64,000 bases of DNA from an uncultured Prevotella sp. (lineage in GTDB: Bacteria; Bacteroidota; Bacteroidia; Bacteroidales; Bacteroidaceae), in contig CAMBOI010000008.1 of assembly GCA_945869265.1 (NCBI GenBank), forward strand, positions 1 to 64,000. Direction: 5' to 3'. The position numbers and the translations under genes are program-made. This document shows, in pieces, positions 4,103 to 55,828 of this stretch. How positions within the stretch are numbered: the stretch's first letter is position 1; every line of letters starts with the position of its first letter. The notes under the pieces are model-generated. The model had not been told where the DNA came from, searched no databases, and saw only the letters and a program-made list of their open reading frames with translations.

Positions 4103-4113
4103 TATTCAAGTTT

Positions 4114-5829: not shown

Positions 5830-8385
5830 TTAGAAATAGACGTCATCGTATGTAGGCTTCTTTTTCTTCTTCGTTTCTGTAGCCTCGGGCTTCTTCGTTT
5901 CTGTAGCCTCGGCAGGAGTCTTGTCTGTTGCAGGGACATTCTCATTGTGCAAATTCTCATCCTTTGAGTGATGGATGATATTGCCTTGCTCGTCATACAT
6001 CACCTCAACCTCCTGCCTTGCCAGTGAATCAATAGCCACGGAGTCGGTGTCCTGACGTGAGCGGTAGTAGCTTGCACAGTTATACATCGACGAGGAAACG
6101 CTTTCGTCCTTGGGTTTGCCAAACTTGCCGTGATAGTCCTTGAAGGCGGGGTCGGAGAGCACTGACTCAAGGAAATAACCGCAGATGGGCAATGCAGTGC
6201 GGCTACCCTGACCGAGGGCTCCTGTGCGGAAGTGGATGCAGCGGTATTCGCCTCCTACCCATGCTCCTACCACCAGTTTGGGACTGACGCCTACAAACCA
6301 TGCGTCGGAGTGGTTGTTGGATGTTCCGGTCTTGCCGCCAAATTCAGTGTCGTTGAACTTGCCTATATATCCCCAAAGACTCATACTTGTGCCGCCTGGT
6401 TCGCGCAATCCACCTTGCAGCAGTTGCTGAACGAGATAGGCACTGCGATAGGGGATGGCCTGCTTCTGTTCGGAAGGAGCCACGAATATCTCATTGCCGT
6501 CGCGGTCGATGATACGTGTCACCAATACAGGTTCGTGGGCCTTTCCATCGTTGACGACGGTGGAGTAGGCATTGACGAGTTCAAGCAGGTTGACGTCGCT
6601 CGAACCGAGAGGCAGCGAAGGCGTAACATCGAGTTTGCTCTTTATACCCATCGCTTCGGCAGTGGCAGCAATGTTGGCAACACCACATTCCTGTCCGAGT
6701 TTGACGGCAATGGAGTTGATACTCTGTGCAAAGGCTGCCTTCAGGGGCAGTGAGTCGCCAGTGAAATATCCGTTGGCATTGGTGGGTGCCCATGTCACCT
6801 CCTTGTTCTGCTTCTTGTCCCACACCTTCATGCTGAAATATGAGTCAACACGCTTGTCGCAGGGGGTGAGTCCCTGATTCATTGCCTCGGTATATACAAA
6901 GAGCTTGAAGGTGGAGCCTGGTTGGCGCATGGCGGTGACCTTGTCGTATTTCCACGACTTGAAGTCGATATCGCCCACCCATGCCTTTACATGGCCGTTC
7001 TGCGGTTCCATTGCAACAAATCCGCAGTGCATGAACTTCACCATATAGCGTATGGAGTCCATGGTGCTCATCTCCAACTCTACGCTTCCCTTCTCATAGT
7101 CGAACACCTTGACTTTGTGTGGCTTGTTCATCCAATAATCCACCGAGTCGGGGTTGTCGGGATATTTCTCCTTGAGCTGTTTGTAGTAGGGCTGACGCTC
7201 GGCAATGCCTTCGATGAATCCGGATATCTCCTGATGCTTCTCGTCCTGCCATGGATTTGTGTTGCCCCAGTGGTTCTTGAAGTTGCGCTGCACCTGCTTC
7301 ATCTGCTTGATGGCAGCAGCCTCGGCATACTTCTGCATACGGGTGTCGATGGTGGTGTAGATCTTGAGACCGCTGGAATAGAGGTCGTAGCCGTTGTCCT
7401 TGCACCAATCCTTGAGGTAGTTGGCAACAGCCTCGCGGAAATATGTAGCCTGACCGTCGTAGTTGCTCTCGACGCTATAGTCGAGGGTGATGGGCTTGAG
7501 TTTGAGAGTGTCGTAGGCGGCGTGGGTGAGATCTCCATGGTTCACCATATTATTAAGTACGGTGTTGCGGCGCTTAAGACTATTCTCGGGATTAATGCGT
7601 GGGTTATAGTATGTTGTAGCCTTGAGCATACCCACAAGGATTGCTGCCTGATCGGTGGTGAGATCCTTTGGTGTGGTGCCGAAATAGGTCTTACAAGCTG
7701 TCTTGATACCAAAGGCATTGCTACCGAAATCAACGGTGTTGGCATACATGGTGAGGATGTCGCGCTTGTCGAAGATAAACTCCAGTTTCACTGCTGTAAT
7801 CCACTCCTTGCTCTTCATTATCAAAATCTTAAGGCCAGGAATGCCACCAAGAAGACCGGTGGAGTAGTTGGTGCGAACACGGAAGAGGTTCTTTGCCAAC
7901 TGCTGGGTGATGGTAGAGGCACCACGGGCATCATGGTGGATGGCGGCGTCCTTGATGGCTGCAAACACGCCGATAAGGTCGATGCCCCTGTGATTATAGA
8001 ATCGCTCGTCTTCTGTATCCACGAGAGCTTTCCAGAATTCGGGATTGACCTCCTCATATTTCACCGGAGTGCGGTTTTCATTGAAATACTTGCCTATCAT
8101 CACGCCGTCGGCACTGTATATCTCGGATGCCTGACTGCTGACGGGGTTCTTTATCTGGCTATAGCTTGGCGACTTGCCAAACAGCCATAGGAAATTGATG
8201 TCAACCGCCACTAAATACAAGATGAAAGCGACGATAAAAGAAACGAATGCAACAAGTGTCTTGGTGTACCATTTCTTTCCCTTGTACAATCCTTTGTACC
8301 ACACTCCAGCCTTGTGGAGTGATTTGCCTATGAGGTGGAGGTAGTATCCTATCTTACCTCTGTTGTCTTCTGAATTTTTGACCAT
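5830..8385 (-). CDS. Penicillin-binding protein 1A (transglycosylase/transpeptidase)
   Basis: DTEDERFYNHRGID, ASTITQQLAKNL, RQPGSTFK, GGKTGTSNNHSDAWFVG. Confidence 0.95.
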   Translation of the reverse strand: MVKNSEDNRGKIGYYLHLIGKSLHKAGVWYKGLYKGKKWYTKTLVAFVSFIVAFILYLVAVDINFLWLFGKSPSYSQIKNPVSSQASEIYSADGVMIGKYFNENRTPVKYEEVNPEFWKALVDTEDERFYNHRGIDLIGVFAAIKDAAIHHDARGASTITQQLAKNLFRVRTNYSTGLLGGIPGLKILIMKSKEWITAVKLEFIFDKRDILTMYANTVDFGSNAFGIKTACKTYFGTTPKDLTTDQAAILVGMLKATTYYNPRINPENSLKRRNTVLNNMVNHGDLTHAAYDTLKLKPITLDYSVESNYDGQATYFREAVANYLKDWCKDNGYDLYSSGLKIYTTIDTRMQKYAEAAAIKQMKQVQRNFKNHWGNTNPWQDEKHQEISGFIEGIAERQPYYKQLKEKYPDNPDSVDYWMNKPHKVKVFDYEKGSVELEMSTMDSIRYMVKFMHCGFVAMEPQNGHVKAWVGDIDFKSWKYDKVTAMRQPGSTFKLFVYTEAMNQGLTPCDKRVDSYFSMKVWDKKQNKEVTWAPTNANGYFTGDSLPLKAAFAQSINSIAVKLGQECGVANIAATAEAMGIKSKLDVTPSLPLGSSDVNLLELVNAYSTVVNDGKAHEPVLVTRIIDRDGNEIFVAPSEQKQAIPYRSAYLVQQLLQGGLREPGGTSMSLWGYIGKFNDTEFGGKTGTSNNHSDAWFVGVSPKLVVGAWVGGEYRCIHFRTGALGQGSRTALPICGYFLESVLSDPAFKDYHGKFGKPKDESVSSSMYNCASYYRSRQDTDSVAIDSLARQEVEVMYDEQGNIIHHSKDENLHNENVPATDKTPAEATETKKPEATETKKKKKPTYDDVYF
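5866..5912. repeat. 24-bp-period duplication in the PBP C-terminal tail (TETKKPEA repeat)
   Basis: CTTCTTCGTTTCTGTAGCCTCGG occurs at 5866-5888 and 5890-5912. Confidence 0.8.
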
Positions 8386-9284
8386 TCTTGTGATATATAT
8401 GTCATTATTTCTTTGTTGTCATCTGCATCAAACCATCGCACCGCCGGGTCGCGCTTAAACCATGTGAGCTGTTTGCGGGCGTATCGGCGGGTATTTCCCT
8501 TGATGCGCTCCACGGCTTCGTCAAGCGGCCAGATACCATCGAAATAGGCGAAGAGCTCCTTGTAGCCTACAGTGTTGAGTGCATTCTCATGGCGATAGGG
8601 TAACAGTCGGCGCGCTTCGTCCTCAAGGCCTGCAGCCATCATTGAATCCACACGGCGGTTGATACGCTCGTAGAGCACTTCGCGTTCGCGATTGAGGGCT
8701 ATCTTGACGATGGCAAAGGGGCGATGCTTGCGCTCGCGCACACGATAGGACGTGAAGGTGTTGCCTGTCTGATGGCATATCTCAAGGGCATGCACCACAC
8801 GCCGAGTATTGTGACGATCGACAATCGCATAGTATTCGGGATCCATCAGGCGCAATTCCTCGCACAATCTCTCAAGACCCTCGCTCTCAAGGCGTTGCTT
8901 CATCCATTGCCTTACATCATCGGTGATGGTGGGGATATCGTCAATGCCATTGCATACTGCATCGATATACATCATGCTGCCGCCTGTCATGAGGGCGATG
9001 TGGTCGTTGCGACCGTCAAACTCCTTTTCGAGTACATGAAGCACGTCTTGCTCGAACATCGAAGCGTTGTAATAGTCGCCCAAATGGAGATTGCCTACAA
9101 AGTAATGCTTCACTCTGCGCAACTGCTCCTCGGTGGGCGAGGCAGTGCCTATGTGCATGTCGCTGTATATCTGACGTGAGTCGGCATTAATAATAGGTAT
9201 GCCATAACTCTCGGCGATATCCAGACATAAATCTGTCTTGCCCACCGCAGTGGGGCCAGTGATTACAACGAGAGTATTCATCAC
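8349..9284 (-). CDS. miaA: tRNA dimethylallyltransferase MiaA
   Basis: VVITGPTAVGKTDL, INADSRQIYSDMHIGTA, TWFKRDPAVRWFD. Overlaps the PBP1A ORF by 37 bp. Confidence 0.95.
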   Translation of the reverse strand: MMNTLVVITGPTAVGKTDLCLDIAESYGIPIINADSRQIYSDMHIGTASPTEEQLRRVKHYFVGNLHLGDYYNASMFEQDVLHVLEKEFDGRNDHIALMTGGSMMYIDAVCNGIDDIPTITDDVRQWMKQRLESEGLERLCEELRLMDPEYYAIVDRHNTRRVVHALEICHQTGNTFTSYRVRERKHRPFAIVKIALNREREVLYERINRRVDSMMAAGLEDEARRLLPYRHENALNTVGYKELFAYFDGIWPLDEAVERIKGNTRRYARKQLTWFKRDPAVRWFDADDNKEIMTYISQEWSKIQKTTEVR

Positions 9285-9308
9285 CCATCAATCATCAATA
9301 ATCAATCA

Positions 9309-10079
9309 TCATCTAATGACGCCACGCTTGGATTTCTCGAAGAAGGAACAGATATACTCCACCTCCTTGGATTCGGGATATTTTGCGCGAGCTTCCTCGA
9401 TGCCTTCCTTGATAACACCCTTGGCATAGATGATGCGATAGGTGTCGTGGATCATGTCGATAGTCTCGTTGCTGAAACCACGACGGCGCAGACCGATGAT
9501 ATTGATACCGCAGTAGCGGGTGGGTTCCTTGCCGGCAATGACGAAGGGGGGGATGTCGAGACTGAAACGGCTTCCGCCCTGAATCATTACATATCCGCCA
9601 ATGTTGCAGAACTGATGGCAGAGCACTGTGGCACTGATGATGGCATTGTCGTGGACAACAACCTCGCCGGCAAACTTTGTGGAGTTGCCGATGATGCAGC
9701 CGTTGCCTACTTCGCAGTCGTGGGCAATGTGCATGTTCTCCATAAGGAGATTATTGTTGCCTACAACAGTCTTGCCCTTGCTGGCTGTGCCACGGCTGAT
9801 GGTGACATTCTCACGAATACTGTTGTTGTCGCCAATCTCGCAGGTTGTTTCCTCGCCGCGGAACTTGAGGTCCTGCGGCTTGGTGCTTATACTTGCCCCG
9901 GCAAAGAACTCATTGCCGTTGCCTATTCTTGCACCAGTGTGGATGGTGACACTGTTCATGAGGTTGTTGTTGTTGCCAATCACAGTGTTCTTGTCGATAT
10001 AGCAGAATGGCCCGATAATGTTGTTGTCGCCAAGTTTTGCCTCGGGATGGACAAAGGCCATAGGACTAATGGTATTCAT
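9309..10079 (-). CDS. lpxA: UDP-N-acetylglucosamine acyltransferase LpxA
   Basis: Left-handed beta-helix hexapeptides; IHTGARIGNGNEF, SKFAGEVVVHDNAIISA, GCIIGN; lpxC neighbourhood. Confidence 0.95.
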   Translation of the reverse strand: MNTISPMAFVHPEAKLGDNNIIGPFCYIDKNTVIGNNNNLMNSVTIHTGARIGNGNEFFAGASISTKPQDLKFRGEETTCEIGDNNSIRENVTISRGTASKGKTVVGNNNLLMENMHIAHDCEVGNGCIIGNSTKFAGEVVVHDNAIISATVLCHQFCNIGGYVMIQGGSRFSLDIPPFVIAGKEPTRYCGINIIGLRRRGFSNETIDMIHDTYRIIYAKGVIKEGIEEARAKYPESKEVEYICSFFEKSKRGVIR

Positions 10080-10102
10080 TCTTTCAGAAATTAAAAATTA
10101 TC

Positions 10103-11488
10103 TTACTTATTCTTTACGATCTGTGCGGTGAATGTAGCCTCCGAAACAATGTGGTCGCCTACGAAGACATATCCCTTCATCGACGAAATGCCATGGCGGA
10201 CAGGAGCAAGGAGGTCAACCTTGAAGAGGAGAGTGTCGCCCGGAACAACCTTCTGGCGGAACTTCACGTCGTCGATACGCATAAAATATGTTGACCAACG
10301 CTCAGGTTCCTCAAGGGTGTTGAGTACGAGCAATCCACCACATTGTGCCATCGCCTCAATCTGAAGAACTCCCGGCATTACAGGCTCCTGGGGGAAATGA
10401 CCCTGGAAGAATGGTTCGTTGCTTGTCACGTTCTTAACTCCCACAATACTTGTTGCACCAAGTTCTATCACCTTGTCAACCAGCTGCATAGGATATCGGT
10501 GGGGGAGAAGTTCGCGGATGCGGTTGACATCCATTATCGGAGTCTCATTCGGATCGTATATGGGAGCCTGAATCTCGTGCTTGCGGATTTCACGGCGCAT
10601 CTGACGTGCAAACTTATTGTTGATGGTATGTCCAGGACGGGTGGCGATGATACGGCCTTTGATGGGTTTGCCGATTAGAGCCATGTCGCCAATGATGTCG
10701 AGGAGCTTGTGGCGTGTGCACTCATTCTCCCATACAAGAGGCTTGTGCTGGATATAACCGAGATTGTTGGCGTTGCGGTGCTCCACCTTGATCATGTCGG
10801 CCAACTGGTCGAGCTGCTCTTGTGAAATCTGCTTTTCGTAGATGACAATAGCATTGTCGAGGTCGCCGCCCTTGATGAGATTGGCCTTGAGAAGAGGCTC
10901 GATGTCACGCACAAACACGAATGTGCGGGCAGCGGCAATCTCGGTGGGGAAATTAGTCATGTTGTCAAGTGAGGCAAACTGACTGTTGATGAATTTGGAG
11001 TTGAAGGAGCACATGGCGGTAAGACTGAACTCCTCGTCGGGAAGAATTACGATGGAAGAGCCGGTGGTCTCGTCCTTCACCTCTATCTTCTTGCGGATGA
11101 TGTAGTAGTCCTTAGGCGCATTTTGTTCCTCAATACCAATCTCTTGGATTTTCTCAACATACTTGATAGCGCTTCCGTCGAGGATAGGAAATTCAGGGCC
11201 GTTGACCTGTATGAGACAGTTGTCGATGCCAAGGGCATAGAGGGCTGCCATACCATGCTCAATAGTAGAAACGCGCACCTCGCCCTTGCCAAGCACTGTG
11301 CCACGCTGGGTGTCGATGACATTCTCGGCAATGGCATCTATTACAGGCATGCCTTCGAGGTCGATACGCTGTATCTTATAACCATGATTTTCGGGAGCAG
11401 GATTGAAAGTCACAGTGAGACTCAGTCCTGTATGCAAGCCTTTTCCGCAAAGCGAGAAACTGCCTTTTAATGTGGTTTGTTTCATCAT
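10103..11488 (-). CDS. Bifunctional UDP-3-O-acyl-GlcNAc deacetylase / (3R)-hydroxyacyl-ACP dehydratase (LpxC-FabZ)
   Basis: LpxC N-terminal half (TLKGSFSLCGKGLHTG, EFPILDGSA) fused to FabZ (LLPHRYPMQLVDKV, GHFPQEPVMPGVLQIEAMAQ). Confidence 0.95.
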   Translation of the reverse strand: MMKQTTLKGSFSLCGKGLHTGLSLTVTFNPAPENHGYKIQRIDLEGMPVIDAIAENVIDTQRGTVLGKGEVRVSTIEHGMAALYALGIDNCLIQVNGPEFPILDGSAIKYVEKIQEIGIEEQNAPKDYYIIRKKIEVKDETTGSSIVILPDEEFSLTAMCSFNSKFINSQFASLDNMTNFPTEIAAARTFVFVRDIEPLLKANLIKGGDLDNAIVIYEKQISQEQLDQLADMIKVEHRNANNLGYIQHKPLVWENECTRHKLLDIIGDMALIGKPIKGRIIATRPGHTINNKFARQMRREIRKHEIQAPIYDPNETPIMDVNRIRELLPHRYPMQLVDKVIELGATSIVGVKNVTSNEPFFQGHFPQEPVMPGVLQIEAMAQCGGLLVLNTLEEPERWSTYFMRIDDVKFRQKVVPGDTLLFKVDLLAPVRHGISSMKGYVFVGDHIVSEATFTAQIVKNK

Positions 11489-11544
11489 AATAGTTTTACT
11501 ATATGTTTGTATTCTTTTAGTCTTTCTCTCTTTATAGCAGACGA

Positions 11545-12576
11545 TTATTTCTTCTTCAGCTCTTCTATCTGCTTTTTCAAATCGTTAAGTTCCTTGTACA
11601 TGTCGGGCAAACGACGGAATACGGCCTGCGACTTGAAGTAGGCCTTGGGCTCCATGGGAGGTGTGCCGATGAGAGTCTGGTCGCCCTTGATATTACCGGG
11701 AACGCCCGATTGTGCACCGAGGAACACTTTGTCGCCGATAGTGATGTGACCGGCAAGACCAACCTGTCCGCCAAACATACACCACGAACCAATCTTGGTG
11801 CTGCCGGCAACGCCCACTTGGGCCGACATGACGGTGTTCTCGCCTACCTCCACATTGTGGGCTATCTGTATGAGATTATCCAGTTTCACTCCCTTGCGGA
11901 TGATGGTGCTGCCCATGGTGGAGCGGTCGATACAGGTGTTGGCACCTATTTCTACGTTGTCCTCAATAGTGACAATACCAATCTGGGGAATCTTGTCGTA
12001 ACCTTCGGCATTGGGGGCAAAACCGAAACCATCGGCGCCGATGACGCTGCCTGCATGGATTGTAACATTATTACCGAGTTGACAACCCTGATAGATGGTG
12101 ACGTTGGGATAGATGGTGCAGCCTTCGCCTAATGTCACGCCATCACCAATGACGGCATGGGGATAGACCTGACATCCACTGCCAATCTTGGCACCATCGC
12201 CGATAACTGCGTAAGCGCCGATATACACATCTTCGGCAACAGTGGCACTTGCGGAGATGGCTGCAGTCTTGTCGATGCCTTGCTTCTTGGGCATACTTGC
12301 AGCATACAACTGCAACAATTTGGCAACACACTCATAGGCGTTTTTCACGCGGATGAGGGTGGCGCTCACAGGCTTCTCTAATACCACATCGTCGTTGATG
12401 AGAACGATGCTTGACTCGGTGTCATAGATATAATGCTGATATTTGGGGTTGGAAAGGAACGAAATAGCTCCTTTCTTGCCTTCTTCAATCTTCGCAAACG
12501 TGTTGACAGAGGCGAGTTCATCGCCTTCTACTTTTCCGCCGATAAACTCGGCTATTTGTTTCGCTGTAAATTCCAT
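11545..12576 (-). CDS. lpxD: UDP-3-O-(3-hydroxymyristoyl)glucosamine N-acyltransferase LpxD
   Basis: Hexapeptide repeats, [39 protein letters not shown]. Confidence 0.95.
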
Positions 12577-19420: not shown

Positions 19421-20404
19421 ATGAAAATATTGAAGTGGGGCTTCATCGGATGCGGTGAAGTGACAGAGAAAAAAAGCGGTCCGGCATTCAGCGAAGTGCC
19501 TGGTTCGAGCGTTGAGGCAGTGATGAGTCGCAGCGAGGAAAAGGCGCGTAGTTATGCCGAAAGACACGGGATAAAAAAGTGGTACACTGCCGCCCAGGAA
19601 CTGATTGACGACCCGGATGTCAATGCCATTTATATTGCAACGCCGCCATCGAGCCATGCCACGTTTGCAATTATGGCAATGAAAGCCGGCAAACCGGTAT
19701 ATGTGGAAAAACCATTGGCAGCGTCGTATGAGGACTGTGCCAGGGTGAATCGTGTCAGTGAGCAGACTCACGTGCCGTGTTTTGTGGCGTATTATCGCAG
19801 GTATCTACCATATTTCCAGAAGGTGAAAAGTATTATCTGCGATGGTGTGATAGGGGATATAGTGAGTGTGCAGATAAGATTTGCCGTGCCACCGAGAGAT
19901 CTCGACTATAGTCATCCTGAGAATCTGCCTTGGCGACTGCAACCGGATATTGCAGGCGGAGGATATTTCTATGACTTGGCGCCACATCAGTTGGACTTGT
20001 TGCAGGATATCTTCGGAGTGATAATCGAGGCGCATGGAATATGCTCAAATCGTGCTGGATTGTATCAGGTGGAGGATTCTGTAAGCGCATGCTTTAAGTT
20101 TGAAAACGGACTCTCGGGTAGTGGTTCTTGGTGCTTCGTGGCATATGAAAGTGCCAAGGAAGACCGTATTGAGGTTGTGGGCACCAAGGGGCAACTGAGT
20201 TTCTCGGTGTTTACGTATGAACCTATTACACTGACGACGTCAGACGGAATCCAAACGATAACAGTGCCTAATCCGCCGTATGTGCAATATCCACTAATCA
20301 AGAGTGTGATAGAGCATTTACAGGGACTCGACATGTGCACATGCACAAGTATTTCAGCCACGCCCGTGAATTGGGCAATGGACAGAATTTTGGGGAAATT
20401 TTAA
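19421..20404 (+). CDS. Gfo/Idh/MocA family oxidoreductase
   Basis: WGFIGCGEVTEKKSGPAF, YIATPPSSHATFAIMAMKAGKPVYVEKPLA. Confidence 0.92.
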   Translation: MKILKWGFIGCGEVTEKKSGPAFSEVPGSSVEAVMSRSEEKARSYAERHGIKKWYTAAQELIDDPDVNAIYIATPPSSHATFAIMAMKAGKPVYVEKPLAASYEDCARVNRVSEQTHVPCFVAYYRRYLPYFQKVKSIICDGVIGDIVSVQIRFAVPPRDLDYSHPENLPWRLQPDIAGGGYFYDLAPHQLDLLQDIFGVIIEAHGICSNRAGLYQVEDSVSACFKFENGLSGSGSWCFVAYESAKEDRIEVVGTKGQLSFSVFTYEPITLTTSDGIQTITVPNPPYVQYPLIKSVIEHLQGLDMCTCTSISATPVNWAMDRILGKF

Positions 20405-20457
20405 TTAGGGATTAGGAATTAGGAATGAGGAATTAGGAATTAGGGATTAGGAATGAG
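20404..20457. repeat. ATTAGGA/ATTAGGG tandem repeat
   Basis: attagggattaggaattaggaatgaggaattaggaattagggattaggaatgag. Confidence 0.85.
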
Positions 20458-43804: not shown

Positions 43805-44215
43805 CTAAAACGTGTTTTCCACCGTCACCAGGATCGTCTCGTCCTTATGCTCCTCGATGAGCAGAATGAGGCGGTTCAGGGCGTCGCGCGAGTGGGTTAG
43901 CACACTTGGGAATGTGCGAGTTCCGATGAGAATGCACCCGCTGGAGTTGCGCACACTGTTGCCTACGTGAATCATTATGCCCGTGAAATGTGGCACGTTC
44001 TGCAGAAACGGCATTTGGGTTTTGAATTTCGTGCTGAATCTCATTTTCAACTTGTATGTGCCTTCGGGGATGGCGGTTTTTCCCGCCACCTTTTCCTCTT
44101 TGCTCCAGTCGATTGCCCTCGGTTCGAGGGTATCGGCGAAGTACCGGTCGTCCACATACATTTTTCCGGCAGTATATGTCTTGCCTTTAATGTCTCTTTT
44201 TATTACAATTTCCAT
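43805..44215 (-). CDS. DUF5675-like protein
   Basis: VAGKTAIPEGTYKLKMRFSTKFK, MIHVGNSVRNSSGCILIG. Confidence 0.8.
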   Translation of the reverse strand: MEIVIKRDIKGKTYTAGKMYVDDRYFADTLEPRAIDWSKEEKVAGKTAIPEGTYKLKMRFSTKFKTQMPFLQNVPHFTGIMIHVGNSVRNSSGCILIGTRTFPSVLTHSRDALNRLILLIEEHKDETILVTVENTF

Positions 44216-44244
44216 AGTTCTTTGTATATATACGGGTTAAAAAT

Positions 44245-44344
44245 AAAACTGTCATCTGTCATCTGTCACTACTTTCATCCACAGATGTTTTTATCCACAG
44301 ATTTCCACAGATGAAAATTTTTATTGGATTATCACAGATTTTTT
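44245..44344 (+). repeat. Outer inverted repeat, left copy (TGTCATC plus CCACAGAT modules)
   Basis: 100 nt identical to the reverse complement of 51152-51252 except for one extra T there. Confidence 0.95.
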
Positions 44345-44434
44345 ATCCACAGAGTTTTTTGTCCACAGATTATCACAGATTAACACAGATTTTTTTAATA
44401 TCTAAAGATATTTTGATTATCACAGATTTTTTTG
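44345..44434 (+). repeat. AATCTGTG/CACAGATT array
   Basis: Continues the CCACAGAT/ATCACAGATT unit series; shares gattatcacagattaacacagattt with 55.4 kb and, inverted, with window positions 1-60. Confidence 0.9.
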
Positions 44435-44682
44435 GGCACGGAAATCCACGGCTTTTTTTAAAAAAAAGACACGGCTTGGCTCCGCATTGATATCCCACGG
44501 CACTTCGTGATTACGGCTTGCTTCGCAAGTTCACGGCTTAGTTACATTTTTCAATATTTCAATATTTTAATATTTCATTTTAGAGCCGTGTCTATACTTT
44601 AGTATAGCCTTAATGCAAATAAAGCCATTCCTATGCGCAGCCCAGCCGTGTCTTTTTTAAAAGCCGTGTCCATCCGTGCCTA
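44435..44682 (+). repeat. CACGGC palindromic element, copy 1
   Basis: GGCACGGAAATCCACGGCTTTTTTT ... AAAAGCCGTGTCCATCCGTGCCTA terminal inverted repeats; internal CTATACTTTAGTATAG and CTTGCTTCGCAAG hairpins. Confidence 0.92.
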
Positions 44683-44711
44683 AAAATAAATCATCAATAA
44701 TCAATCATCAT

Positions 44712-44766
44712 CCTAATCAGAGCCTTTGGCTCTTAATCTGTGCCAATCTGTGTTAATCTGTGGTCT
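44712..44766 (+). repeat. 55-bp exact repeat, copy A
   Basis: cctaatcagagcctttggctcttaatctgtgccaatctgtgttaatctgtggtct is identical to 55746-55800. Confidence 0.95.
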
Positions 44767-44833
44767 GAAAAAAACTATCAGTGGTCTTTTCATCAGTGCC
44801 AATCAGAGTTAATCTGTGGTCTATAAAAACCTG

Positions 44834-47107
44834 TCAGACTTTGCACTTCACAATCTCTCCGTCGATCGACTCGTAGCTCACAATCCCCCGCGCCTTCCAC
44901 TTGGCCAACAAGTTCTTGGCCGAGCCGCCTCGCTTGCCGAGCCTCGAGCGCAGGTTTTCCAAGTCCTTAAGCCGGAATATCTCGGGCAACATCTCACAGA
45001 GATTCTGCGGACCGCGATGGTTTGACAGCTTGTTCTCGGCAATCTCCTTCTCAAGCATCTCGCCGAAAATCAGCATCTTGCACCACAAGTCATATCTCAA
45101 CGACCATCTCACATAGTCCTCGATTACCGTGGTCCATTGCTGACCGTTGAGCAGCCAGAGCACCATTCCCTTGAGCCATGCTATCACCGTGGCGCGATAA
45201 CTCAGCACGAGATAACCCTCGGAGTCGTATAGTTCGGCCAGGCGCTCATTTTCGTCGCACAGATTCTGCGCAAATTTGTTGGCCTCCTCGCATTTGTATG
45301 TGCCGTGAAACGACTCCAGCAAGTCAACCACCTTGTTCACCGTGGCGCGGTATTCGTCATCGTAGATGCCATACACAGGGCGAGCGCCTTCGGGCTTGAT
45401 GATGGTAGATACCGAGAGGCGGGTGATGGTGCCGTCGGTGATGTTCTTCCTGAAGAAGTTGCGGGCGTTCTTCGGGCAGCTCGACGCATTGAAGTTGAAG
45501 CGAAGCGGAGCTATTCCCGTCACCGATGCCGAGCCCACTCGCTCCTGTCCGTGAGGACTATTGTCAAACGCTTTGCGAATGATTGTACTGACCTCTTGCT
45601 CACTATTCCGGGAGGTGATATTTTTCAGAGTGTCGAGTTCATCCACTTTTACGTAAATATATTTCTCACCGTTGTAGGCTGCGTCGGCCACTCGCTGATT
45701 GAACACTGCGTCGGTCAGATTGTCTATGAGCGACTGCACGCAGAGGTCTTTTGGTCTTGCCTCTAGCGATGTTGCCCCTTGCGGGTTTTTCAGTTTCCAT
45801 TGCGCCTCGCGTTCCCTGGCCACTTTGTCATTTTCGGATATTCTGCTCACCATCATCTGACAGGGTTTGGTGACGCATCCCTTACCTATCGACATCTGAG
45901 CTGCCAGCAATTCCATAAACGTAGCCTCGTGCAATACATTGTCCCAATACATAAATTTCACACCGCTCATGTTCACTGCCATTGGCGGGAAGAGATTTTC
46001 GCACACTGCAGGGCGATAGTATTCAGGCGCTCTGGAGCACAGTTCGCCCAAGGGTGAGGGGAGAATCGTGGGCATTTGGGGAGGCAATTTGCTGTCGAGT
46101 GCATTCACCAGTTCGAGTTGGCTTTTGCCCTTGTTCTCTTCCTCGTTGAGCAGGTTGAGCACCTTCTGCAGTTTGAAGTTGATGCCCTTGCGCGGTTCGT
46201 CGATAGCATTTTTCAGGCATTGCTCATATTCCTCCTGCGGCAGATCGCAATAGCGGGGGATGACCAATTTGAGCACATTGATGTCATAATCGCATATCGC
46301 GCGTAGCGAGCGTGCGAGGTCGAAGATGAGAGCATTGCGATTGCCCACCACAGGCTCTTTGCCACCATTATATACCTCCCAGTATTTCGCGATAATCTTT
46401 GTAAAATTATATCCGAAATAGATGACATCGCCTTGCGGTGCCGATTGCGCCTCTGCCGCCTTGTCCGATTGCTCCTCGGTCGCCTTGCTCGCCTCGGCCT
46501 CCGGCTTCGCTTCTGTCGCCGTTTCTGCCGTCGCCTTCGTCCTTTCCTCCTTCTTCCCCTCGGCTGCCTCATTTATAAATAGCTCGTCCTTGCAGAAGAA
46601 GAGATCCTGAGCATCTGCGGTAGGCGTAAAGAAGACGCGAGTGATATCTTTTGCCGCAGGATCCGCCTCCACGCCAAGCATTTTCGATGCCCATTTCAGG
46701 TTTTCCTCCTGACTCATTTCGGGATGGCGTCGGAACACCACGTGCAAGCCCTTCGTAGCCGAGCGCTCGAGCATCAGCAGTCCCAGTTCATCGGCCTTGG
46801 CGAGGATATTTTCCTTTACAATGTCAAACTGCCGTTGGAACTCCTCCTTATCCATTCCCGCCTGAAAATCCACGTCCATTCCCACCGAGTTGCTCTCCAC
46901 CGTGGCGCCTTTGAGCTTGCCGTCATTCGGCATACAGGAGTAATTGAACTGTATCATCCTGCGCTTGCCGTCAGCATTGCCGTTGCGCGCTTGTTGAGTC
47001 ATCTCGCGGTTGTGTTTTGAGTTGCGCAGTGCGGCAAATTCCTTGAAGTTCTTAATCGGGATCATAGTTTTCGCCCCGTTCTTATATTCTATTACGTGTA
47101 CGCTCAT
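44834..47107 (-). CDS. BT4734-like N-terminal domain/DUF3987 primase-helicase-like protein
   Basis: VGMDVDF, SATKGLHVVFRR, DITRVFFTP (AEP/BT4734-like); AAQMSIGKGCV degenerate P-loop, YVKVDELDTLKN, ITRLSVSTI. Confidence 0.8.
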   Translation of the reverse strand: MSVHVIEYKNGAKTMIPIKNFKEFAALRNSKHNREMTQQARNGNADGKRRMIQFNYSCMPNDGKLKGATVESNSVGMDVDFQAGMDKEEFQRQFDIVKENILAKADELGLLMLERSATKGLHVVFRRHPEMSQEENLKWASKMLGVEADPAAKDITRVFFTPTADAQDLFFCKDELFINEAAEGKKEERTKATAETATEAKPEAEASKATEEQSDKAAEAQSAPQGDVIYFGYNFTKIIAKYWEVYNGGKEPVVGNRNALIFDLARSLRAICDYDINVLKLVIPRYCDLPQEEYEQCLKNAIDEPRKGINFKLQKVLNLLNEEENKGKSQLELVNALDSKLPPQMPTILPSPLGELCSRAPEYYRPAVCENLFPPMAVNMSGVKFMYWDNVLHEATFMELLAAQMSIGKGCVTKPCQMMVSRISENDKVAREREAQWKLKNPQGATSLEARPKDLCVQSLIDNLTDAVFNQRVADAAYNGEKYIYVKVDELDTLKNITSRNSEQEVSTIIRKAFDNSPHGQERVGSASVTGIAPLRFNFNASSCPKNARNFFRKNITDGTITRLSVSTIIKPEGARPVYGIYDDEYRATVNKVVDLLESFHGTYKCEEANKFAQNLCDENERLAELYDSEGYLVLSYRATVIAWLKGMVLWLLNGQQWTTVIEDYVRWSLRYDLWCKMLIFGEMLEKEIAENKLSNHRGPQNLCEMLPEIFRLKDLENLRSRLGKRGGSAKNLLAKWKARGIVSYESIDGEIVKCKV

Positions 47108-47481
47108 TTCAATGCCTCCTTTATTTCCTTTTTCATTACTGTCTTAAAGTCAACCCCCTCGTCGTCATACACTTTCATCATCAGCAGGTAGGCTCCGTCG
47201 GCTGTCTTCGACAGACTGCCGTGCATCGTGGATTTCAGTCGCACGGCGCGACTCTTGTTCTGTCTTGTCCTCGGTGTCACCACGATATATCCCTCGTCGT
47301 CGATAGAGTAGTAGCCCCATCTGTGCACCTGCTTCACCCTGTGCGGGCGTGCCGCGTCGGGCACCACCTTCACCGTGTTGTCTTCATACACCATTGCCTT
47401 GCCGGCATATACAGTCTCTAATGTTCGCGCGCAAGAAATACCTGCTTGGCAGGCAATCTCCAAAATCTTCTTTCGTGCCAT
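47104..47481 (-). CDS. Hypothetical protein, overlaps the primase start by 4 bp
   Basis: 125-aa ORF directly upstream of the primase-like gene. Confidence 0.75.
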   Translation of the reverse strand: MARKKILEIACQAGISCARTLETVYAGKAMVYEDNTVKVVPDAARPHRVKQVHRWGYYSIDDEGYIVVTPRTRQNKSRAVRLKSTMHGSLSKTADGAYLLMMKVYDDEGVDFKTVMKKEIKEALK

Positions 47482-47508
47482 ATTCTGAAATTAAATGTCT
47501 TGAAAAAA

Positions 47509-47802
47509 TTAATACTTAAAATCCTTGTTGAAATGCTGTTCCTTGATGAGCACCATCAGAGCCCATGCCGTGCCTCTGACGTTGCGCAGTTCCTCGGGTA
47601 GCATCTTCATCGCGGTTGAGAAATACCACAGCGCATTAGCCACGTCGGGCTGCACCTCGGAGCGCAGTCCAGCCACGAAATTTACGCAGTCGCTGCCCAC
47701 TCTCTCGCTCACGCCCGTCACCACCAGGTCGAGAGTCTCCTTTGCGTTTGGATTGAGGGGATATTTCCCCGTCTCCATCATCTCAACAGTTTTTGTTGCC
47801 AT
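47509..47802 (-). CDS. Hypothetical small protein
   Basis: MATKTVEMMETGKYPLNPNAKETLDLVV...; start set at ATG 47802, not the longer 47868. Confidence 0.7.
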   Translation of the reverse strand: MATKTVEMMETGKYPLNPNAKETLDLVVTGVSERVGSDCVNFVAGLRSEVQPDVANALWYFSTAMKMLPEELRNVRGTAWALMVLIKEQHFNKDFKY

Positions 47803-47884
47803 AATCTCTTTTGTTTTTAAATTAATAATGTGTATATCACTCTCTGCGACTGTCGAATGGCCATTCATCGTCGTATTTCAGGTG

Positions 47885-47892
47885 CAAAGATA
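47885..47892 (-). promoter_or_regulatory. -7 element TATCTTTG for the primase operon
   Basis: CAAAGATA on + strand, about 83 bp upstream of ATG 47802. Confidence 0.6.
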
Positions 47893-47927
47893 AGAAGTAT
47901 TTTCCACATGGATGTAATGAAAATGCA

Positions 47928-47955
47928 TAAAAAAAGCGACCGGAAATGGTCGCTT
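47928..47955 (-). terminator. Hairpin terminator
   Basis: AAGCGACC-ggaaat-GGTCGCTT followed on - strand by a U tract. Confidence 0.8.
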
Positions 47956-47998
47956 GAAATATCTGATGATTACTCTAAGTAGATTAATAATCAGACGA

Positions 47999-48511
47999 TT
48001 AATAGGTGGTCGCTTTCGGTCGCATAATTTTTAGGAGTGTGTCACTCTCGGATGATATTACGGGTTTGTTCTTCGCCAATTTCAGCGGTTTGCCGTCTTT
48101 CACGAACAGCTTCTCGGTCAGTTCTTCCAATGTCGCCATCCTCAGTAGTTTTGAGTCGATGGCCTTCTGGTTTTTGAGTGTGACAAACTCGCGCGCCAGT
48201 TGCTTGGTCTGCAACCATACAATCTGCTTCACCTCGCCGTTGATTTCGGCCTTGTATCCCATTATGAAGAGAAACGAGTCTTCGTCGCAGTCAGGGGCGA
48301 TGAATCTTTCGTTGATGAGCTGTTGATACACCTCTCTGCCTTGCTTCTCGTTGCCATCGAGCGGGAAATGCCTCTTACCGCCCTCATTTGCGGCGTGCTG
48401 ATGGTTAATCACCGTTCCGCCCGATTCGTTCACCACGATGATCTGTGCCTCACTGAGGTCTGCTCCCTTGAACAGCCCTTCAAACATTCCTTTACTTTCC
48501 ATGTTTTCCAT
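47999..48511 (-). CDS. Hypothetical protein
   Basis: 170-aa ORF in operon with 48492-49139 (20-bp overlap). Confidence 0.75.
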   Translation of the reverse strand: MENMESKGMFEGLFKGADLSEAQIIVVNESGGTVINHQHAANEGGKRHFPLDGNEKQGREVYQQLINERFIAPDCDEDSFLFIMGYKAEINGEVKQIVWLQTKQLAREFVTLKNQKAIDSKLLRMATLEELTEKLFVKDGKPLKLAKNKPVISSESDTLLKIMRPKATTY

Positions 48512-49139
48512 TTTTCTTCTTATTATGATATTCCACTTTCCCGTTATTGCTCACCACTACCTGGGCCGCCGTGTGCACGATCGGCTGAGGCTCATGCCTA
48601 TGATTGTTGTCATATTCCTGGGGTATTTTTTCTGTCTTTTGCATTAATTCGAAAATGTCTGCTTGAGGAGCCTTGCAGTCATTCAAATAATAATGCATCA
48701 GCATATCCTTGATTACCACAGCCTGCTCGCGTGTATAGGATAGATTCTGCGCATAATCAATTATCCAGTTTGCATCTATCCTGATCGCCTTTTTCTTGAC
48801 GCTCATCACTGTGTCGCGCTCCTCTTCTTGGGCATTTATCCCTGGCTTGCTTATTATGATGTGATCCCGGGCTTCAATCTGCTTAATCTTGGATTCCAGC
48901 CTTTTGTGTGTCATCGCAAGCTTTTGGTATTGCTCGGCAGTTTTTTCCGCCTGGGTTTTCCATGCGCTATTGTCTTTCTCCAACTCTTCTGTCTGATTTC
49001 TGAGCGACTCGTTTTCAGTCTTCAGTTGTCTGACGTAGTTCTTGAAATTCACAATGCGTTGGTCGTCGTCCTTGGTTTTGTCAGCCAGGATGAGTTCGAG
49101 CAATTCTAACCCGTACAAGTCTTCATTTCTTCTTTTCAT
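48492..49139 (-). CDS. Hypothetical coiled-coil protein
   Basis: Long heptad-like region VRQLKTENESLRNQTEELEKDNSAWKTQAEKTAEQYQKLAM. Confidence 0.75.
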   Translation of the reverse strand: MKRRNEDLYGLELLELILADKTKDDDQRIVNFKNYVRQLKTENESLRNQTEELEKDNSAWKTQAEKTAEQYQKLAMTHKRLESKIKQIEARDHIIISKPGINAQEEERDTVMSVKKKAIRIDANWIIDYAQNLSYTREQAVVIKDMLMHYYLNDCKAPQADIFELMQKTEKIPQEYDNNHRHEPQPIVHTAAQVVVSNNGKVEYHNKKKNGKHGK

Positions 49140-49174
49140 ATCAAAGATTTTTGTTTGTATTTATAAAATCGCTG

Positions 49175-49182
49175 CAAAGTTA
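49175..49182 (-). promoter_or_regulatory. -7 element TAACTTTG for the 49139 operon
   Basis: CAAAGTTA on + strand upstream of ATG 49139. Confidence 0.6.
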
Positions 49183-49312
49183 ATAAAAAAATCCCGTTCT
49201 GCCAATACCCATTGTCTATTCTTAACAGATACCGAAAAAGAAAAAAGAATTCTCATTATCTGTATGTCAACAAAAATGAAGATTTTTACGCAAGGTGCAA
49301 GGGTATGAGGGA

Positions 49313-49525
49313 AGTGACAGATGACAGATGACAGTTTTGTTTTTTACTCGGATATGGGGGAGTGGGATATTTTTAGAAAATTGCTCTAAGAATTTTATGT
49401 TATATATATTTATATATATAATATATTATATATATAAATATATATAACATAACCCCTAAATCCAGGTATAACCTCATACATACATCCCGAGTAAAAAATG
49501 AAACTGTCATCTGTCATCTGTCACT
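49313..49525. repeat. Large hairpin element with perfect 58-bp central palindrome (49395-49452)
   Basis: 39-bp outer arms 49313-49351 and 49487-49525 (2 mismatches); central ttatgttatatatatttatatatataata/tattatatatataaatatatataacataa checked base by base. Confidence 0.97.
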
Positions 49526-49745
49526 AAATTGAGTGTATTGCATGGATGGGGTCATTTTCTTAAAAAACATGGAATGTAAAAACATTTAACCGAAATGATA
49601 ACGCACCGCGTTTTGGTAGTTAGACAACAATTGTGGGGTAGTTGGAGAGATGGATTATAGGCCGCGGGCGGGACGCCATGCTCCCAGAGGCTCCGCGACA
49701 GAGGGAATATGATGTTAAATGATGTTAATAGCAGTAATTTTGATT

Positions 49746-49785
49746 GCTCACAAAATTGCCATGTGCTCACAAAATCGTACCTTTG
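49746..49785 (+). promoter_or_regulatory. Promoter of the HU-like gene with duplicated GCTCACAAAAT
   Basis: GCTCACAAAAT at 49746-49756 and 49765-49775; TTG at 49755-49757 and TACCTTTG at 49778-49785, 20-bp spacer. Confidence 0.7.
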
Positions 49786-49886
49786 CAACGTGGGAATGAG
49801 AGATACTGCGCAGGCTCTCGGGACACAAAAATGTGAGAACAACAAACAAAAAATTTTTTATTAACCTTTTTAATTTAATTACAGTT

Positions 49887-50462
49887 ATGGCAATTAAGAT
49901 TCGAGCACAAGAGAAGAAGATTCTCGTGGGACCCAACAAGGGTCAGTATGCGTATGTAGCGCAAGTGGAGCTTTATTCTGCACTCACGCAGAGCAAGGTT
50001 CTTGAGGAGGCAGCCCTGAGCTGCGGTGTTAACAAGTCGGTTCTCGCGGCATCGTGGGAAGGTCTCGGGCACGTGATCAACCGATGGGCGACGGAGGGAC
50101 ACTCGGTGCCTATCCCGGGACTCGGTACGATGCGATTTAGCGTCAACTCTCAGAGCGTGGAGAAGTTGGAAGACGTGTCGGCCAAGATGATTACCACGCG
50201 CAAGGTGGTGTTCACTCCGAGTGTCGATCTGAAGAACACGCTGGCTTCCACCTCGGTGAGCATCACCTGTTACGACCGCAATGGCGACATGGTGAAGCGA
50301 GTGACGGCTTCGGGAGCGCCTGTGGAGGGCGAGGGTGACACCTCGGGCGAGGAGAACGAGACTCCGACTGACACTGGCGGCAGCGGCAGCGACAACACCG
50401 GCAGTGGCTCTGACAACACCGGCAGCGGCTCTGCCACCGATGGCGAGGACTACTACGAGTAG
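49887..50462 (+). CDS. HU-like DNA-binding protein with GSDNTGSG-rich tail
   Basis: MAIKIRAQEKKILVGPNKGQYAYVAQVELYSALTQSKVLEEAALSCGVNKSVLAASWEGLGHVINRWATEGHSVPIPGLGTMRF. Confidence 0.88.
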   Translation: MAIKIRAQEKKILVGPNKGQYAYVAQVELYSALTQSKVLEEAALSCGVNKSVLAASWEGLGHVINRWATEGHSVPIPGLGTMRFSVNSQSVEKLEDVSAKMITTRKVVFTPSVDLKNTLASTSVSITCYDRNGDMVKRVTASGAPVEGEGDTSGEENETPTDTGGSGSDNTGSGSDNTGSGSATDGEDYYE

Positions 50463-50535
50463 GTTGAGAGCCCTTCGGGGCTCTTAAAATTGAAATATTG
50501 AAATATTGAAAGATTGATGATTATTGATAAATTTT

Positions 50536-50759
50536 AGGCACGGATTGACACGGCTTTTTAAAAAAGACACGGCTGGGCTCCGCACGGGAATGGCTTTATT
50601 TGCATAAAGGCTATACTAAAGTATAGACACGGCTCATTACCGCAGAAAAGCAAACTAAGCCGTGAACTTGCGAAGCAAGCCGTAACCACGAAGTGCCGTG
50701 GTAAATATCCATGTGGAGCCAAGCCGTGTCTTTGAAAAAGCCGTGGATTTCCGTGCCTA
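50536..50759 (-). repeat. CACGGC palindromic element, copy 2 (inverted)
   Basis: TAGGCACGGATTGACACGGCTTTTT ... AAAAAGCCGTGGATTTCCGTGCCTA ends. Confidence 0.92.
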
Positions 50760-50797
50760 ATAAATTAAGGACAATTAAAATTATGGAGGACAAAATT

Positions 50798-50905
50798 ATG
50801 ACAAAAGAGAACAAAGCAAGACTGGTCAAGTTTCTGTGGAACCTCGCCTCGGCAGTATTGGCAGCAATCGGAACCGCTCTTGGCGTAAGTTGCGCAGTAG
50901 CATAA
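50798..50905 (+). CDS. Smalltalk-like 35-aa single-TM peptide
   Basis: MTKENKARLVKFLWNLASAVLAAIGTALGVSCAVA; resembles the Bacteroidales smalltalk family found next to HU-like genes. Confidence 0.7.
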   Translation: MTKENKARLVKFLWNLASAVLAAIGTALGVSCAVA

Positions 50906-50910
50906 ATTTT

Positions 50911-50988
50911 TACCACAGAGATAAAAAGAAAAAGAGATTTGTAGTTTATCGTAATATGAATACTCTAAATCTCTTAATCTCTGTGGTT
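50911..50988. repeat. Inverted repeat with CCACAGAG/CTCTGTGG ends
   Basis: taccacagagataaaaagaaaaagagattt versus aaatctcttaatctctgtggt. Confidence 0.75.
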
Positions 50989-51002
50989 CAAAATCATTTT
51001 AA

Positions 51003-51107
51003 GCAGTGAACTTGCGCAAGCAAGCCGTTATCACGAAGTGCCGTGGTAAATATCCATGCGGAGCAAAGCCGTGTCTTTTTAAAAAAAGCCGTGTCTTTCC
51101 GTGCCTA
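51003..51107 (-). repeat. CACGGC element, copy 3 (inverted, truncated)
   Basis: gtgaacttgcgcaagcaagccgttatcacgaagtgccgtgg ... ccgtgcctaaaa. Confidence 0.88.
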
Positions 51108-51262
51108 AAATAAAAATCTGTGATAATCTGTGGACAAAAACATTTGTGGACAAAAAATCTGTGATAATCCAATAAAAATTTTCATCTGTGGAAATCTGTG
51201 GATAAAAAACATCTGTGGATGAAAGTAGTGACAGATGACAGATGACAGTTTTGTTTTTTACT
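51108..51262 (-). repeat. AATCTGTG array plus outer inverted repeat, right copy (51152-51252)
   Basis: Reverse complement matches 44245-44344. Confidence 0.95.
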
Positions 51263-54270: not shown

Positions 54271-54285
54271 GGAAAGCTTTTATTT

Positions 54286-54376
54286 AAACACAGAGACACA
54301 GAGGCACAGAGAATAATATTAAGTTTTCTGAAGATACAGAGAGAAAAAACCTCTGTGACTCTGAGCCTCTGTGTTT
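54286..54376. repeat. CACAGAGRCACAGAG inverted repeat between convergent genes
   Basis: aaacacagagacacagaggcacagag versus cctctgtgactctgagcctctgtgttt. Confidence 0.85.
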
Positions 54377-54385
54377 ATAAAAAAA

Positions 54386-55051: not shown

Positions 55052-55255
55052 AAAAAAGGGTCGTATCGTGATTGTGATGAAAACTCCTATTTGCATAAGA
55101 TTAGGGTGCTCACCGTCGTTGTAATCCACCGGCATTGCTGCTGTCCTGCTCCAAGGATGTGGCCCGCCATTGACAAGTGAAACGGTCCCTGTTTTCGGTA
55201 TTTTTTTGATGAGTATCCCGATCTAACCGATACGACCCGTATTCCTTTTTTCCTT
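55052..55255 (-). ncRNA. Structured ncRNA, rod-like; SRP-RNA-like (ffs) or 6S-like, identity unresolved
   Basis: Perfect 11-bp terminal stem GGGTCGTATCG (55238-55228) / CGATACGACCC (55068-55058), U-run after it, internal AGGG/CCCU, ACCGU/ACGGU, UUGU/ACAA helices, apical GGCCACATCC..GGACAGCAGC. Confidence 0.7.
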
Positions 55256-55264
55256 TTGTCGGTG

Positions 55265-55296
55265 CAAAGGTACGAAGATTTTCTGAAATCTCCAAA
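55265..55296 (-). promoter_or_regulatory. Promoter of the ncRNA
   Basis: TACCTTTG (complement 55265-55272) and TTTG (complement 55293-55296) with 20-bp spacer. Confidence 0.8.
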
Positions 55297-55304
55297 TTTT
55301 TTCT

Positions 55305-55468
55305 CCACAGATTTCTTGTTTATCCACAGATTTCCACAGATGAATAATTTTATTGGATTATCACAGATTCCTTTTTATCCACAGAGTCTTTTTATTGTCC
55401 ACAGATTATCACAGATTAACACAGATTTATTTATAACTTTGTTATAATTATCACAGATTTTTTATTTT
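55305..55468 (+). repeat. AATCTGTG/CACAGATT array, third large copy
   Basis: ttatccacagatttccacagatga..attggattatcacagatt..gtccacagattatcacagattaacacagattt, same order and orientation as 44.29-44.43 kb. Confidence 0.93.
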
Positions 55469-55723
55469 TAGGCACGGAAATCCACGGCTTTTTTTAAAAA
55501 AAAGACACGGCTTGGCTTCGCATTGATATCCCACGGCACTTCGTGATTACGGCTTGCTTCGCAAGTTCACGGCTTAGTATGCTTTGTAGACGGGTCGCAG
55601 CTTAGTTTGTTTTTCTGCGGTAATGAGCCGTGTCTATACTTTAGTATAGCCTTTATGCAAATAAAGCCATTCCTATGCGCAGCCCAGCCGTGTCTTTGAA
55701 AAAGCCGTGTCCATCCGTGCCTA
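55469..55723 (+). repeat. CACGGC palindromic element, copy 4
   Basis: TAGGCACGGAAATCCACGGCTTTTTTT ... AAAAAGCCGTGTCCATCCGTGCCTA; same orientation as copy 1. Confidence 0.93.
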
Positions 55724-55745
55724 AAATATATCAATCAATAATCAC

Positions 55746-55800
55746 CCTAATCAGAGCCTTTGGCTCTTAATCTGTGCCAATCTGTGTTAATCTGTGGTCT
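55746..55800 (+). repeat. 55-bp exact repeat, copy B
   Basis: Identical to 44712-44766. Confidence 0.95.
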
Positions 55801-55828
55801 AAAAAATCTATCTGTGGTCTAAAAAACA

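What the first reader, a model, noticed from the sequence alone, without database searches (positions are those of the whole stretch)
44245..51252. A ~7-kb island bracketed by near-perfect inverted repeats and carrying a primase-like operon, unknown small genes, an HU-like protein and a smalltalk-like peptide
Seen directly: 44245-44344 and the reverse complement of 51152-51252 differ by a single T in a homopolymer. Inward of each lie more inverted modules (AATCTGTG array, CACGGC element). Between them are a BT4734/DUF3987 primase-like gene with two co-directional small genes, a second two-gene unknown operon, and a divergent HU-like plus smalltalk-like pair. Each group has its own TAnnTTTG promoter. 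No transposase, integrase, relaxase or reverse transcriptase is visible inside. Inference: a self-contained replication or nucleoid-type module whose boundaries are set by intergenic repeats, possibly a domesticated phage/plasmid remnant or an uncharacterised non-autonomous mobile unit.
Basis: partly seen in the sequence, partly recalled or inferred. Interest (0 to 1): 0.78.

Follow-up and report, generated by a model that had tools for sequence, protein, structure and literature searches.

The report
Primase gene cluster amid dispersed repeats
The near-perfect inverted repeats are real, but they are copies of repeats scattered through this Prevotella-like genome beside ordinary housekeeping genes, so they do not mark out a mobile island; the genes between them belong to a common phage-like primase cluster that the bacterium keeps and in which one slot swaps genes.

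Summary
In detail: 44245-44344 and the reverse complement of 51152-51252 are 100/101 identical, differing by one T. The boundary reading fails. The CACGGC element has about 44 copies and the AATCTGTG array has dozens in the 2.8-Mb genome, next to ordinary genes (RF3, Sua5, KdsB, UxaC). A third composite lies outside the block at 55.3-55.8 kb. In the nearest relative (G015) most of the same genes lie in the same place and orientation, one CACGGC copy is missing (empty site), and the conserved cluster continues past the left arm (DUF5675). The core gene is a BT4734-like archaeo-eukaryotic primase fused to a DUF3987-type ATPase; all three catalytic motifs are invariant in 42 relatives. In relatives it sits with an antirepressor, an SSB-like gene and a peptidoglycan hydrolase. 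Genes shared with G015 are under purifying selection (dN/dS 0.04-0.19). Two things were not in the finding. A cargo slot (47892-49165) holds two unknown genes here and an unrelated one in a near-identical strain. A 24-bp module at four places in the block evolves in concert: all 8 copies here are followed by T, all 7 in G015 by C. Mobility or inversion of the block is not shown.

The parts
43805..44215 (-). DUF5675 gene; in relatives it sits directly downstream of homologous primases, so the conserved cluster extends beyond the left arm
   Evidence: Pfam PF18925 E 9.7e-31; adjacency in L044, L045, L050, L051, L052, L054, L058
44236..44278 (+). module A copy A1 (outer part of left arm), about 30 bp upstream of the DUF5675 start codon
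44280..44428 (+). AATCTGTG / CCACAGAT array (module B) of left arm
44429..44695 (+). CACGGC element (module E) with about 50-bp imperfect terminal inverted repeats; about 44 copies in the genome
44699..44772 (+). AATCTGTG array (module C), third module of the common B-E-C composite
   Evidence: (D2)
44834..47107 (-). BT4734-like archaeo-eukaryotic primase fused to DUF3987-type P-loop ATPase, 757 aa; motifs D78xD80, G120-x-H122, D154, Walker A G408-K409
47104..47481 (-). 125-aa protein in operon with the primase; 120-150-aa genes of other families fill this position in relatives
47509..47802 (-). 97-aa conserved small protein
   Evidence: 80% identical in G015, dN/dS 0.19
47885..47892 (-). TATCTTTG promoter box of the small-gene/primase operon; homology with strain SUG565 ends exactly here
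47892..49165 (.). cargo slot: s170+cc215 here, a 354-aa gene in G015 and a related gene in SUG565
47999..48511 (-). 170-aa unknown protein (s170); homologues beside other primase clusters
   Evidence: no Pfam, NCBIfam or PHROG hit
48492..49139 (-). 215-aa coiled-coil unknown protein (cc215)
49175..49182 (-). TAACTTTG promoter box of the cargo operon; region conserved in G015 although the cargo differs
49305..49348 (-). module A copy A2
49395..49452 (.). 58-bp perfect AT-rich palindrome between A2 and A3; similar A-palindrome-A elements in G007, G018, G020
   Evidence: (I23)
49488..49526 (+). module A copy A3
49887..50462 (+). HU-HIG family DNA-binding protein
   Evidence: PF18291 62 bits, cut-off 26.2; 94% identical in G015
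50532..50763 (-). CACGGC element copy between HU and smalltalk-like gene; absent at this site in G015
50798..50905 (+). smalltalk-like 35-aa peptide
   Evidence: NF033879 11.2 bits, below cut-off 24.7; conserved in G015, dN/dS 0.04
51000..51110 (-). partial CACGGC element
51115..51210 (-). AATCTGTG array (module B) of right arm
51219..51262 (-). module A copy A4 (outer part of right arm)
55296..55806 (+). third B-E-C composite outside the block, same orientation as the left arm
   Evidence: (D4 98%, D8 99%)

Best explanation
The block is a chromosomal gene cluster around a BT4734-like primase-ATPase, kept at one locus in this lineage. Its inverted flanks are two copies of intergenic repeats that are scattered through the genome. 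The cluster probably descends from the replication-and-lysis part of a phage-like or satellite element: primase-helicase, small partner proteins, a cell-wall gene (DUF5675), and in relatives an antirepressor and an SSB-like gene. It is now maintained by selection. One slot between two fixed promoters carries exchangeable, mutually unrelated cargo genes. The repeats are a composite array (B-E-C) and a 7-mer-based module (A). They have settled between genes and recombine with one another, which keeps the copies of one genome alike and makes the two outer arms nearly identical. Shown: dispersal beside ordinary genes, an empty site, same-locus synteny, AEP motifs, purifying selection, the cargo swap, concerted evolution. 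Inferred: descent from a phage-like element, biochemical activity, and gene conversion as the homogenising process.
For: Left-arm sequence matches 55 places; the CACGGC element has 44 copies on 21 contigs, 21 of them with an array immediately 5' on the same strand. Copies flank KdsB-type cytidylyltransferase, RmlD, RF3, Sua5, SPOUT methyltransferase, UxaC, DPPIV and LUD genes. Empty site in G015 between HU and smalltalk. Synteny with G015, same order and orientation. AEP motifs invariant in 42 relatives and fold matches to Prim-Pol and viral DUF3987 primases. Neighbourhood in 80 loci: Rha/KilAC antirepressor, SSB-like, M15, phage lysozyme. dN/dS 0.04-0.19. Cargo swap at 47892 against a strain 98% identical in the primase. 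Arms: inner flank 14/14 identical within each species, 6/14 between species. All 8 versus all 7 module-A copies differ by a fixed T or C.
Against: Only one relative (G015, two contigs that break at the central palindrome) shows most of the block, so 'kept in place' rests on two genomes plus one contig. The primase operon has a higher synonymous divergence (dS 0.93-1.09) than glnS or GH25 (0.38), which could mean replacement by transfer. Phage ancestry is by gene content; homologues are almost absent from phage, plasmid and IMG/VR collections.
Confidence: 0.75

Rival explanations
1. The arms are the ends of an invertible or non-autonomous mobile unit: recombination or transposition acts at the two 100-bp arms and moves or flips the 7-kb block.
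For: Arms 100/101 identical, and within each species alike beyond their orthologues, which implies they exchange sequence. Module A is rare (8 copies) and is present at both ends in both species.
Against: Same locus and same orientation in G015. Synteny breaks lie outside the arms on both sides. The same modules surround housekeeping genes, and module A also brackets DUF4301-relA. The conserved partner DUF5675 lies outside. No recombinase in the block, and no tyrosine-recombinase motif within 10 kb of 80 relatives.
Confidence: 0.08
2. The cluster is an active anti-phage or phage-satellite-like system: the primase-ATPase with antirepressor and cell-wall hydrolase acts on infecting phage DNA, and the exchangeable cargo gives specificity.
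For: Cargo swap under fixed promoters. R-M genes next to several homologous clusters: type III in C3, D12 and C5 methylases. Multi-copy, diverged clusters per genome. Purifying selection.
Against: No convincing PADLOC model hits. Cargo families share no detectable domain. R-M proximity was not tested against a background rate. No functional data.
Confidence: 0.25
3. Module A is a functional site (binding or recombination site serving the cluster), with the AT-rich palindrome between A2 and A3 acting like an origin.
For: 24-bp core identical in all 15 copies of two species whose flanks differ by about 8-22%. A sits at primase 3' ends in three other genomes and about 30 bp before DUF5675 in the window. 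A-palindrome-A elements recur in G007, G018, G020.
Against: Copies also lie by thrC, relA, dtd and uvrC. Most primase clusters lack it: no close match in 80 loci except G015. Other primase-DUF5675 spacers hold different short repeats. The primase 3'-end sites may be one inherited site.
Confidence: 0.1

Closest known systems
BT4734-like archaeo-eukaryotic primase family fused to DUF3987 ATPases (families named in PMC5862659)
   Same: AEP motifs I-III invariant; P-loop ATPase; C-terminal winged-helix-like fold match; association with mobile-element-type genes
   Different: Window protein scores below Pfam cut-offs (DUF3987 E 0.011; BT4734-like_N only in other members); chromosomal, nearly absent from the phages and plasmids searched
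BrickBuilt and other MITE-like intergenic repeats of Porphyromonas gingivalis (PMC4596501)
   Same: Intergenic, modular, terminal inverted repeats plus short tandem arrays, tens of copies, conserved sites between strains, no transposase inside
   Different: Sequence differs; order here is array-element-array (B-E-C); no target duplication or partner IS shown
REP / BIME interspersed palindromic repeats (own knowledge; cf. abstract of PMC2817692)
   Same: Composite intergenic palindromic units in mixed orientation
   Different: Longer units (216 bp plus arrays); no RAYT transposase looked for
Bacteroides thetaiotaomicron DUF3987 gene BT0709 with nearby BT0706 amidase (both listed in PMC10434189)
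   Same: DUF3987 gene near a cell-wall amidase, the same kind of neighbourhood
   Different: Not compared in sequence here

Membership tests
BT4734-like AEP primase | Motif I hhhDhD/E, motif II sxH, motif III D/E | tested here: met
   VGMD78VD80, G120LH122 and D154 invariant in 42 members; motif definitions
BT4734-like AEP primase | Curated Pfam score (BT4734-like_N, DUF3987) | tested here: not met
   DUF3987 15.3 bits vs cut-off 27 in the window protein; 4 of 11 relatives match, best 3.8e-10; BT4734-like_N in 2 of 11, best 0.0088. So 'BT4734-like' is claimed by motifs and relatives, not by a passed model.
BT4734-like AEP primase | Prim-Pol fold | tested here: inconclusive
   Foldseek prob 0.93 to CAPP Prim-Pol but E 0.17; viral primase/DUF3987 proteins E down to 3e-5
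MITE (CACGGC element) | Short, non-coding, terminal inverted repeats, multi-copy | tested here: met
   216-bp consensus, about 50-bp TIRs, 44 copies
MITE (CACGGC element) | Target-site duplication | tested here: inconclusive
   Flanks ATTTTTA / TAAAAA continue the inverted repeat; no uniform duplication
MITE (CACGGC element) | Partner transposase with the same ends | not tested
   No search was made for an IS with these ends
IR-bounded transposon or mobile island | Ends specific to the unit | tested here: not met
   Same modules at dozens of other sites and outside the block at 55.3-55.8 kb
IR-bounded transposon or mobile island | Presence/absence or movement as a block | tested here: inconclusive
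   Present at the same locus in G015; no strain lacking exactly this block was found; breaks lie outside the arms
Invertible DNA segment | Both orientations observed | tested here: inconclusive
   Same orientation in the two genomes available; no reads examined
smalltalk protein (NF033879) | Score above curated cut-off 24.7 | tested here: not met
   11.2 bits
HU-HIG (PF18291) | Score above curated cut-off 26.2 | tested here: met
   62 bits
Prophage / phage genome | Capsid, terminase, integrase or close phage homologues | tested here: not met
   No structural phage gene recognised among block ORFs; primase finds 1 of 50,697 phage records and 1 IMG/VR contig

The most novel reading that the evidence does not exclude
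Module A and its A-palindrome-A elements are functional sites around the primase cluster, kept identical across copies and species by selection or directed conversion, and they take part in exchanging the cargo between fixed promoters: a cassette-swapping system without a known recombinase.
Probability: 0.07. Interest if true: 0.75.

Novelty: new member of a known kind. Interest (0 to 1): 0.33.

Why it matters
It removes a false lead: inverted repeats are not boundaries when the same units lie beside housekeeping genes. It also gives an anatomy for a common but uncharacterised Bacteroidales gene cluster (primase-ATPase, partner genes, cell-wall gene, swapped cargo). The concerted evolution of module A at fixed positions is a testable case of sequence homogenisation between dispersed repeats in a bacterium.

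Tried and rejected
Phage origin by homology: primase and s170 searched in phages, plasmids and IMG/VR, almost nothing found. Defence family by PADLOC: only weak coiled-coil-type matches. s170 structure: pLDDT 35, not used. PDB sequence search with the primase profile: no match. A common domain among the cargo families by profile-profile comparison: none above 4% probability. RNA reading of the CACGGC element: no Rfam match in it, and two of three pieces fold no better than shuffles (z -0.43, -0.42), the third slightly better (z -1.85); low-score miRNA matches nearby fall on hairpins. Module A as a general boundary of primase clusters: absent as a close match from 80 loci except G015. Tyrosine-recombinase motif near 80 relatives: none, though the regular expression could miss divergent ones. 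Simple empty site glnS-GH25: these genes are not neighbours in other genus members.
Full report
Observation. The two arms are as near-perfect as stated: 44245-44344 against the reverse complement of 51152-51252 gives 100 identities and one gap, a T in a T run. Over the wider arms (44236-44381 vs 51115-51261) it is 140 of 147. The inner modules are real too. Each arm is built from parts: module A (GAGTAAAAAAYAAAACTGTCATCTGTCATCTGTCAC, built on the 7-mer TGTCATC), module B (CCACAGATT array) and module E (the CACGGC element); the left arm adds module C (AATCTGTG array).

The repeats are not specific to this block. A third B-E-C composite lies at 55296-55806, most of its modules 95-99% identical to those of the left arm. 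In the 2.81-Mb genome the left arm finds 55 matches, and module E has 44 copies on 21 contigs, 31 of them at least 215 bp long; 21 of the 44 have a B array immediately 5' on the same strand. Sampled copies lie beside a KdsB-type cytidylyltransferase, RmlD, release factor 3, Sua5, a SPOUT methyltransferase, UxaC, DPPIV and a LUD protein. Module A is rarer, 8 copies: four here and four around DUF4301-relA on contig C17.

The relative G015. Same gene order and orientation: glnS, DUF5675, A1, E, primase (77% aa), 125-aa and 97-aa genes, cargo, A2, then on a second contig A3, HU (94%), smalltalk-like (89%), A4, C11 peptidase, GH25. The contigs break where the window has a 58-bp perfect palindrome (49395-49452). 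G015 lacks the E copy that the window has between HU and the smalltalk-like gene (about 78 bp vs about 320 bp), so E copies come and go. Against other genus members the order glnS ... ribE is interrupted outside both arms: they carry other genes there, and C11-GH25-zn324 lie elsewhere. So the arms are not the evolutionary borders.

The genes. The 757-aa protein belongs to a family with 325 confirmed relatives in one scan of genomes, mostly Prevotella and other Bacteroidales, with several diverged copies per genome. All three AEP motifs and a Walker A are invariant in 42 members. The model (mean pLDDT 72) resembles Prim-Pol structures in part and viral DUF3987 primases overall, consistent with the BT4734-like AEP family named in PMC5862659. 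Pfam alone does not place the window protein above its cut-offs. In 46 well-flanked relatives the neighbours within 4 kb on the same strand are a Rha/KilAC antirepressor (16), an SSB-like gene (13), a 120-150-aa gene (23), a 130-aa gene (19) and a peptidoglycan hydrolase or lysozyme-like gene of one of several kinds (21). In other relatives that position is taken by DUF5675, which in the window lies outside the left arm. dN/dS between the window and G015 is 0.165 primase, 0.158 and 0.186 small genes, 0.15 HU, 0.04 smalltalk-like, 0.12 DUF5675: these genes are kept. The 170- and 215-aa genes could not be tested this way because G015 lacks them here.

Cargo slot. Strain SUG565 (primase 98% aa) matches the window only up to 47892, the end of the TATCTTTG box; beyond it carries a gene related to the 354-aa gene of G015 instead of the 170- and 215-aa pair. 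The right border in G015 is about 49165, at the next promoter. The 170/215 pair occurs next to another primase cluster on contig C3 of the same genome (with type III R-M, Bro antirepressor and M15 peptidase) and on G015 contig C45 beside a D12 methylase; the 170-aa gene also in L163, G028 and G008, all on contigs with a primase homologue. The cargo families share no detectable domain. G015 also holds a DUF4160/DUF2442 pair and DUF3990 in the same interval.

Concerted evolution. The 14 bases just inside module A are identical between the two outer arms in each species (14/14 and 14/14) but only 6/14 between species. All 8 module-A copies in this genome are followed by T, all 7 in G015 by C, including copies at the orthologous relA locus. 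Positions are orthologous while sequence is shared within the genome. Gene conversion between copies is the simplest account (inference); it also explains the near-perfect arms without a mobile unit.

Verdict. Real repeats, wrong boundary. A phage-flavoured primase cluster, kept by selection, with an exchangeable cargo slot, in a stretch rich in dispersed repeats. Unresolved: what the cluster does, whether the arms ever invert, and whether module A has a function.

Noticed in passing
window 55053-55237 (-): Bacteroidales-1 (6S-like) RNA, RF01693, 116 bits, E 2.6e-19.
   Followed up: no
L066 (G000 C17) 4682-9491; L252, L253 (G015): Module A copies around thrC, DUF4301, relA and OmpH-like genes; same locus in both species, copies homogenised within each genome.
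   Followed up: partly
L249 8039-8170; L248 3238-3390 and 16800-16966; L250 14520-14645; L245 690-773: A-palindrome-A elements (AT-rich palindrome of 38-42 bp between inverted module-A copies; only one A copy detected in L245) in G020, G018 and G007, intergenic.
   Followed up: partly
L075 (G000 C3) 1993-11896: Paralogous primase cluster with Bro antirepressor, M15 peptidase, s170 and cc215 homologues and a type III restriction-modification pair.
   Followed up: partly
L071 11091-12403: DUF3990 and DUF4160/DUF2442 genes in G015 inside the interval between cargo promoter and A2, absent from the window.
   Followed up: partly
primase-DUF5675 spacers in L050, L051, L052, L054, L058: Each spacer carries its own short-period repeat (TTACACG, TTCATAA, ACATTGT, CACAATGC and so on); 7- to 10-mer arrays also recur in the window, e.g. 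AATTAGG x7 at 20403-20454.
   Followed up: no
window 54278-54384: ACACAGAG inverted repeat hairpin between zn324 and ribE, close to the right synteny break.
   Followed up: no
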